Shown: in pieces, positions 5,723-59,430 of the stretch
How positions within the stretch are numbered: the first letter of the stretch is position 1
Layout: each line of letters starts with the position of its first letter
Assembly (NCBI GenBank): GCA_018816705.1
Contig: JAHIVG010000103.1
Location: 1 to 60,952, forward strand
DNA from: Nanobdellota archaeon
GTDB taxonomy: Archaea; Nanobdellota; Nanobdellia; Woesearchaeales; JAHIVG01
Length of the DNA: 60,952 nucleotides
Direction of reading: 5' to 3'
Notes under the pieces: model-generated
Databases searched by the model: none
What the model was told of the DNA's origin: nothing
The model's input: the letters and a program-made list of their open reading frames with translations, nothing else
Made by a program: the position numbers and the translations under genes

Positions 5723-6211
5723 ATGCGCTCATTTGTCGCCCTTGACATCCCAGAAGGATTGATCACGAAATTAAAGTATATTCAGGATGCGCTGAGGGGG
5801 CATGGTCAATTCTCTTTTCCAAAGAGCTTCCACCTCACGCTGAGCTACCTGGGTGAAATTGAGGACGCTGAAAGGATAATCGAAGGCCTGTCCCAGATAC
5901 GCTTCGACCCGTTCAAATTCAAGCTGGACAAGGTAGGCATGTTCGGCAAGCGAGTTATATGGATCGGCATCAAGCCAGAGCAGGATGTTGTTGAACTGGC
6001 CAAGCAGGTGAGAAAGGCAGCGCCTCCAAAAGACAGCAAGTTCCACCCCCACATCACCCTCGCCAGGATAAAATGGCTGAAGGACCAGGACTGGAAGGTA
6101 ACCATCCCGGAAGACGAAGTGCTGGTAGAAGCCTTCAAGCTGTACAAGAGCACCCTCACTCCGGAAGGGGCGGTATACGAAGTGTTAGGGAGTTTTACCC
6201 ATGGAAAATAA
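5723..6211 (+). CDS. thpR: RNA 2',3'-cyclic phosphodiesterase (LigT/ThpR family)
   Basis: Two HxTL/HxTx motifs: FHLTLSYLG and FHPHITLARIK. Confidence 0.9.
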   Translation: MRSFVALDIPEGLITKLKYIQDALRGHGQFSFPKSFHLTLSYLGEIEDAERIIEGLSQIRFDPFKFKLDKVGMFGKRVIWIGIKPEQDVVELAKQVRKAAPPKDSKFHPHITLARIKWLKDQDWKVTIPEDEVLVEAFKLYKSTLTPEGAVYEVLGSFTHGK

Positions 6212-7025: not shown

Positions 7026-7175
7026 GGGCCCGTAGCCTAGTCTGGATAAGGCGACAGCCTTCTAAGCTGAGGGTTCAAGTATCAGCTTGGATCCGCTTAA
7101 TAGATCGGGGGTTCGAATAGTTGACGCTTGCGGCAACGGCCGAGAAGCGCAGCTTCGACAGTCCCCCCGGGCTCA
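7026..7175 (+). tRNA. tRNA-Arg(UCU) with two introns (7070-7100 and about 7118-7161)
   Basis: Acceptor GGGCCCG/CGGGCTC, D-arm GCCT/AGGC, loop CTTCTAA. A mature cloverleaf forms only after removing two insertions; the first sits in a well-formed bulge-helix-bulge. Confidence 0.88.
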
Positions 7176-7307
7176 CTTCATTTTCATGAACCGTTACCTT
7201 CATGCCCTTGTGAAATTGGTGATAGTGGCAGTGCGGCACTTGGTTATTCTGCTGTTCTTCAGCAAGAAGAAACCTTTATAAATCCAGCAACACTAATCAA
7301 TAAATAT

Positions 7308-7393
7308 GCGGGGGTGGCCAAGCGGTTTAAGGCGGTCGCCTGCAGAGCGATTATTCGGGGGTTCGAAACCAAGCGAGAGTCCCTCCCCCCGCT
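7308..7393 (+). tRNA. tRNA-Cys(GCA) with a 12-nt T-loop intron (7368-7379)
   Basis: Acceptor GCGGGGG/CCCCCGC, discriminator U73, anticodon arm GTCGC-CTGCAGA-GCGAT, T-arm GGGGG-TTCGAA[intron]T-CCCTC. Confidence 0.9.
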
Positions 7394-59357: not shown

Positions 59358-59430
59358 GCCTCCGTAGCATAGTAGCTATTGCGTGGGACTTGTAATCCCA
59401 AGGTCGTGGGTGCGAATCCCACCGGAGGCT
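59358..59430 (+). tRNA. tRNA-Thr(UGU)
   Basis: GCCTCCG/CGGAGGC, anticodon arm TGGGA-CTTGTAA-TCCCA, T-arm GTGGG/CCCAC. Confidence 0.88.

What the first reader, a model, noticed from the sequence alone, without database searches (positions are those of the whole stretch)
7308..7393. tRNA-Cys with a 12-nt T-loop mini-intron
Removing ACCAAGCGAGAG (7368-7379) restores a perfect T-arm GGGGG-TTCGAAT-CCCTC. The junction forms a bulge-helix-bulge: helix TTCG/CGAG, bulges AAA and AGT, with the intron core reduced to a CCAAG loop. This is near the lower size limit for an archaeal tRNA intron, and it is at the same 59/60 position as intron 2 of the neighbouring tRNA-Arg. That suggests intron spread or a shared endonuclease with relaxed substrate recognition.
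Basis: partly seen in the sequence, partly recalled or inferred. Interest (0 to 1): 0.8.

Follow-up and report, generated by a model that had tools for sequence, protein, structure and literature searches.

The report
Tiny T-loop intron in archaeal tRNA-Cys
The only cysteine tRNA gene found in this archaeal genome is interrupted by a 12-base intron in its T-loop, the smallest of some twenty introns at the same spot in other tRNA genes, all sharing one short splice signal that pairs with the universal T-loop sequence.

Summary
tRNA-Cys(GCA) lies at 7308-7393. Among all deletions of 0-40 nt, only 12-nt ones restore the T-arm and acceptor stem. About 38 orthologues in the same order are intronless with the predicted T-loop; five carry longer introns at exactly 59/60. 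No second tRNA-Cys was found.

In this genome at least 20 tRNA genes appear to carry 59/60 introns, 12-46 nt long. Across the order these introns end in (Y)GAAAG|T, and the intron Y pairs with tRNA base 57 (A57-U 86, G57-C 28, A-C 3, G-U 2). This compensatory change supports a splice helix formed by the universal UUCR of the T-loop. The Cys motif is a relaxed bulge-helix-loop, not a full bulge-helix-bulge.

One EndA gene was found: single unit, intact triad, no crenarchaeal loop, no beta subunit detected. RtcB is present. If the enzyme really is alpha4, it contradicts the published rule that alpha4 enzymes handle only strict canonical introns. The intron itself is a new member of a known kind. 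Splicing was not observed.

The parts
7308..7393 (+). tRNA-Cys(GCA) gene with a 12-nt intron (anticodon 7342-7344)
   Evidence: spliced form called by ARAGORN; aligned orthologues
7368..7379 (+). 12-nt intron ACCAAGCGAGAG at position 59/60
   Evidence: only 12-nt deletions restore the strict T-arm and acceptor; absent from about 38 orthologues
7362..7365 (+). 5' strand of the splice helix: UUCG, T-loop bases 54-57
   Evidence: base 57 covaries with the intron partner in the order and in the own genome
7374..7377 (+). 3' strand of the splice helix: CGAG in the intron (U54-G is a wobble)
   Evidence: MFE of the isolated arm
7378..7380 (+). 3-nt bulge AG|T holding the 3' splice site
   Evidence: matches the (Y)GAAAG|T consensus of the order
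7357..7385 (+). T-stem (7357-7361 with 7381-7385) acting as outer helix h of the splice motif
7275..7282 (+). TATA-like TTTATAAA 26-33 nt upstream of the tRNA-Cys gene, suggesting its own promoter
   Evidence: read from sequence; inference
7026..7175 (+). neighbouring tRNA-Arg(TCT), introns at 42/43 (7070-7100, 31 nt) and 59/60 (7118-7161, 44 nt)
   Evidence: spliced 75-mer is a complete tRNA-Arg(TCT) in ARAGORN
59358..59430 (+). tRNA-Thr(TGT), uninterrupted, for contrast

Best explanation
The element is an enzymatically spliced archaeal tRNA intron of 12 nt at T-loop position 59/60 of the only tRNA-Cys(GCA) found. In the pre-tRNA the T-stem is the outer helix, T-loop bases U54-G57 pair with intron CGAG, and the 3' site sits in an AG|U bulge while the 5' site (AA|A) sits in an 8-nt loop: a relaxed hBH or bulge-helix-loop motif. 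The single EndA cuts both sites and the single RtcB joins the exons, giving the T-loop UUCGAAU. It is the smallest member found of a genome-wide set of 59/60 introns. Because the splice helix uses the near-universal UUCR of the T-loop rather than the anticodon, any insert ending in YGAAAG can in principle be spliced from any tRNA, which would explain why this site was filled so often. Shown: gene, intron, site, comparative conservation, shared grammar, enzyme genes. Inferred: cleavage, ligation, portability.
For: Only 12-nt deletions rebuild the tRNA. About 38 intronless tRNA-Cys orthologues have the predicted joined T-loop, and five others carry longer introns at the same junction (G139, G233, G143, G052, G110); one more in the wider class (G479). 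In own-genome 59/60 introns base 57 pairs with the intron: A57 always faces U (10 of 10), G57 mostly C or U (Fisher p = 0.0015 on the U/C cases). Across the order: A-U 86, G-C 28, A-C 3, G-U 2. A strict pattern gave about 150 listed matches (list cut) in 279 genomes, against about 10 for the reversed control. The decoder gave no call at or above 17 on shuffled loci, real calls being 17.2-22.3. EndA and RtcB are present.
Against: No RNA data. The arm's folding energy is not unusual (z = -0.21). The cloverleaf is not the MFE of the full precursor. The Cys intron ends GAGAG rather than GAAAG, giving a U54-G wobble. The genome is 94% complete, so a second tRNA-Cys cannot be fully excluded.
Confidence: 0.93

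Rival explanations
1. The gene is a decayed tRNA-Cys with a 12-nt insertion, and another tRNA-Cys does the work.
For: Standard tRNA finders do not call it.
Against: All stems are intact apart from the insert; no other tRNA-Cys in pattern or Rfam searches of the genome; the insert has the splice grammar of the other 59/60 introns; orthologues carry introns at the same site.
Confidence: 0.03
2. The insert is retained and the tRNA works with a 19-nt T-loop.
For: No RNA data here; 12 nt is short.
Against: It would destroy the 7-nt T-loop needed for D-loop contact; about 20 other tRNA genes would need the same oddity; compensatory change between base 57 and the intron has no reason to exist if the insert is retained.
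Confidence: 0.02
3. EndA is a heterotetramer whose diverged beta subunit was missed, so the relaxed motif is handled by a conventional broad-specificity enzyme (a rival on the enzyme, not on the intron).
For: The best PDB match of EndA is the alpha subunit of N. equitans, a broad-specificity (alpha-beta)2 enzyme (PMC6379350); some beta subunits are barely similar (2zyz_A at E = 0.008); the genome is 94% complete.
Against: The profile detects N. equitans beta at 6e-17 but finds only one gene here even at E <= 10; all 20 genomes in the sample have a single match above the family cut-off.
Confidence: 0.35
4. The Cys intron came by recent transposition from another tRNA of this genome (a rival on origin).
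For: Same site and splice end as about 20 others; Leu-CAA and Leu-CAG introns are homologous.
Against: No convincing similarity of the Cys intron to any other outside the splice-dictated end; 12 nt is too short to test well.
Confidence: 0.25

Closest known systems
Non-canonical archaeal tRNA introns at 59/60 (Crenarchaeota, Nanoarchaeota; review PMC4090602)
   Same: Same position; removed by the EndA/RtcB type of pathway; relaxed hBH motifs known; size range 11-129 nt includes 12.
   Different: Here 59/60 dominates the genome and recurs through an order of small archaea, with one consensus end and an apparently single-subunit EndA.
Thermoproteales tRNA intron expansion (Pyrobaculum calidifontis, 71 introns in 46 genes; PMC8450103)
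   Same: Many non-canonical and multi-intron tRNAs; similar density (about 45 introns in the 28 genes read here).
   Different: Intron sites there are scattered and the published crenarchaeal enzymes are (alpha-beta)2, typically with a CSL; here one site dominates and no CSL or beta was found.
Permuted tRNAs of Thermofilum pendens joined at 59/60 (PMC3218864, PMC3978253)
   Same: The same T-loop junction used by EndA.
   Different: Here exons are in normal order and spliced in cis.

Membership tests
Archaeal BHB-type tRNA intron (EndA-spliced) | Removal restores a complete tRNA | tested here: met
Archaeal BHB-type tRNA intron (EndA-spliced) | 4-bp central helix with a 3-nt bulge holding the 3' site | tested here: met
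   UUCG/CGAG and AG|U; covariation in relatives
Archaeal BHB-type tRNA intron, strict hBHBh' form only | Second 3-nt bulge and inner helix h' (not required for the relaxed hBH form) | tested here: not met
   Only one possible C-G pair inside, less stable than the open loop; filed as the relaxed hBH form
Archaeal BHB-type tRNA intron (EndA-spliced) | EndA and RtcB genes in the genome | tested here: met
Archaeal BHB-type tRNA intron (EndA-spliced) | Cleavage and ligation of the transcript | not testable with these tools
   no RNA data
alpha4 EndA (M. jannaschii type) | One-unit protein with catalytic Tyr-His-Lys | tested here: met
   178 aa; Y114, H124 and K155 are invariant in the 14-sequence alignment
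alpha4 EndA (M. jannaschii type) | No separate beta subunit gene | tested here: inconclusive
   one match only, but the genome is 94% complete and some beta subunits are very diverged
CSL-bearing broad-specificity EndA | Crenarchaea-specific loop with conserved Lys | tested here: not met
   the stretch is absent in the alignment with 3p1z and 2cv8

The most novel reading that the evidence does not exclude
A homotetrameric alpha-only EndA without CSL or ASL processes relaxed bulge-helix-loop introns at 59/60 in most tRNAs of an archaeal order, so relaxed specificity arose by another route, and the universal UUCR makes 59/60 a portable intron site.
Probability: 0.4. Interest if true: 0.7.

Novelty: new member of a known kind. 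Interest (0 to 1): 0.5.

Why it matters
Reviews state that alpha4 enzymes accept only strict motifs at the canonical site, and that relaxed introns go with heterotetramers or with special loops (PMC4090602, PMC6379350, PMC12397907). This lineage looks like an exception that can be tested with one small enzyme and a 29-nt hairpin. It also means tRNA counts for these archaea are badly underestimated: default tools call one of the three tRNA genes read in this window. Finally, 59/60 offers a natural experiment on intron gain at a site whose pairing partner is the same in nearly every tRNA.

Tried and rejected
ARAGORN on deletions is too permissive to fix the intron. Folding energy is uninformative. 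A kinship of the Cys intron with other introns was not found. A second EndA or beta subunit was not found. The Rfam tRNA search at E <= 10 finds few of the split genes. Papers on tRNA introns in Woesearchaeota or DPANN: none relevant in the held library; subscription papers were not searchable.

Full report
WHAT IS THERE. The window is from a 1.74-Mb, 114-contig archaeal genome, 94% complete. The nearest named relatives by ABCE1 are MAGs labelled Woesearchaeota (56%) and Aenigmatarchaeota (59%), so a DPANN archaeon, probably of the Woesearchaeales; the exact name was not established. The tRNA-Cys(GCA) gene is at 7308-7393. The T-stem is GGGGG/CCCTC with the insert ACCAAGCGAGAG at 7368-7379 between T-loop bases 59 and 60. 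Unspliced, it is missed by ARAGORN and Rfam. Spliced, it is a 74-nt tRNA-Cys.

IS IT CHANCE? ARAGORN also calls a tRNA after many other deletions (206 of 2747), so that test is weak. With a strict demand (7-nt TTCRANN loop, 5/5 T-stem, 7/7 acceptor) only deletions of 12 nt succeed, in seven registers and three products. The product with A59-T60 is the one found in orthologues. A pattern search of 288 genomes of the order, with the flanks read, gave about 38 intronless tRNA-Cys genes joined exactly there, for example G231 and G067 with the same anticodon-to-T-loop layout. Five other genomes carry longer inserts at the same junction: G139; G233 and G143; G052 and G110. One more in the wider class, G479, shows CGAAAG|TCC. 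A family with both states (f42) shows that the intron has been gained or lost within it; polarity is not known.

THE WIDER PATTERN. Searching the own genome for GGTTCRA...AGNCC and decoding the loci showed that the site is shared. A decoder that allows introns at 37/38 and 59/60 read 59/60 introns in Cys 12, Ile-TAT 13, Arg-GCG 14, Gly-CCC 16, Pro-CGG 16, Asp 19, Leu-TAA 19, Ala-GGC 20, Gln 20, Leu-GAG 31, Pro-GGG 35, Trp 44 and Glu 46 nt. tRNA-Arg(TCT) in the window has 44 nt there. A looser reading adds Lys, Leu-CAA, Phe, Ala-TGC and two of unsure identity, and Leu-CAG was read by eye. Uninterrupted at 59/60 are Gly-GCC, Ser-GCT, Lys-CTT, Asn, His and Tyr and Thr. So 21 of 28 genes read; but many loci were fetched because they matched the intron pattern, so the true share is probably between one half and three quarters. 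On shuffled loci that keep the T-loop seeds, the decoder gave no call at or above 17, while real calls score 17.2-22.3.

HOW IT WORKS. In these introns the last bases pair with UUCR of the T-loop: UUCA with UGAA, UUCG with CGAA, followed by a bulge AG|U. In the own genome A57 faces U in 10 of 10; G57 faces C in 6, U in 2 and A in 3 (and the sequences; Fisher p = 0.0015 on the U/C cases). In the order, among 127 introns ending GAAAG, A-U 86, G-C 28, A-C 3, G-U 2, others 8. These sequences are related, some are chance matches, and only the first 150 or so were listed, so the p-value overstates independence; but base 57 differs between tRNAs within single genomes, and both pair types occur side by side there. 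A stricter pattern gave about 150 listed matches (list cut) in 279 genomes of the phylum, nearly all in this order, against about 10 for the reversed pattern. The Cys intron uses CGAG, so G57-C is kept and U54-G is a wobble. There is no room for an inner helix: the 5' site lies in an 8-nt loop. That makes it a relaxed hBH motif, not the full bulge-helix-bulge claimed. The predicted hairpin is the MFE of the isolated arm, but its energy is ordinary.

ENZYMES. One EndA gene was found (178 aa, next to RNase Z), with Tyr, His and Lys of the active site intact. Its best PDB match is the N. equitans alpha subunit. The stretch that forms the CSL in A. pernix and S. tokodaii EndA is missing in the alignment. 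A profile of 14 relatives finds N. equitans beta at 6e-17 but no second gene here at E <= 10, and all 20 genomes in the sample have one match over the cut-off. The simplest reading is an alpha4 enzyme. Reviews hold that alpha4 enzymes are strict and live with few, canonical introns (PMC4090602), and that relaxed recognition comes with heterotetramers or with CSL/ASL loops (PMC6379350, PMC12397907). Either this lineage breaks that rule, or a diverged beta subunit was missed. RtcB is present.

WHY THIS SITE. Canonical introns pair with the anticodon (PMC4090602), so each fits few tRNAs. At 59/60 the pairing partner UUCR is almost the same in every tRNA, so an insert ending YGAAAG should splice anywhere. 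Archaeal tRNA genes use upstream TATA promoters (a TATA-like box is visible at 7275-7282), so a broken T-loop should do no harm to transcription. This is inference. Direct evidence for copying is limited: the Leu-CAA and Leu-CAG introns are homologous, but the Cys intron is not convincingly alignable with any other.

KNOWN OR NEW. Introns at 59/60 and introns of 11-12 nt are both known (PMC4090602). I found no paper in the held library on tRNA introns in this lineage. The Cys intron is therefore a new member of a known kind. The order-wide use of one site with one splice signal, together with an apparently loop-less single-subunit EndA, is the part a specialist would want tested.

Noticed in passing
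window 7070-7100: tRNA-Arg(TCT) intron 1 is at 42/43 rather than 37/38, with a good bulge-helix-bulge: AAGC/GCTT helix, AA|T bulge and an inner helix.
   Followed up: partly
L152, L139, L133, L144: Leu-CAG, Leu-CAA, Lys and Phe tRNA genes seem to carry additional D-loop introns, up to three introns per gene; about 45 introns in 28 genes overall.
   Followed up: partly
L139 and L152: The 59/60 introns of tRNA-Leu(CAA) and tRNA-Leu(CAG) are homologous, by gene duplication or intron copying.
   Followed up: partly
L154, L157: Probable Ser-type tRNA genes with several hairpin-like inserts that my decoder could not read.
   Followed up: no
window 5723-6211: A 2',3'-cyclic phosphodiesterase (LigT/ThpR family, TIGR02258) is encoded 0.8 kb upstream of the two split tRNA genes; RNA ends of this type arise in tRNA splicing.
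   Followed up: no
G000:C3:4006-4039, C23:24-57, C69:63-96: GTTCAAGAATTTCATCCCAAATTCTGAGAAAGTC occurs three times, near contig ends: a repeat, perhaps a duplicated tRNA or mobile element.
   Followed up: no
L019: The EndA gene lies head to head with an RNase Z gene.
   Followed up: no
whole genome: The Rfam tRNA model at its own cut-off finds only 9 tRNAs in a 94% complete genome; tRNA counts in such archaea will be badly low.
   Followed up: partly
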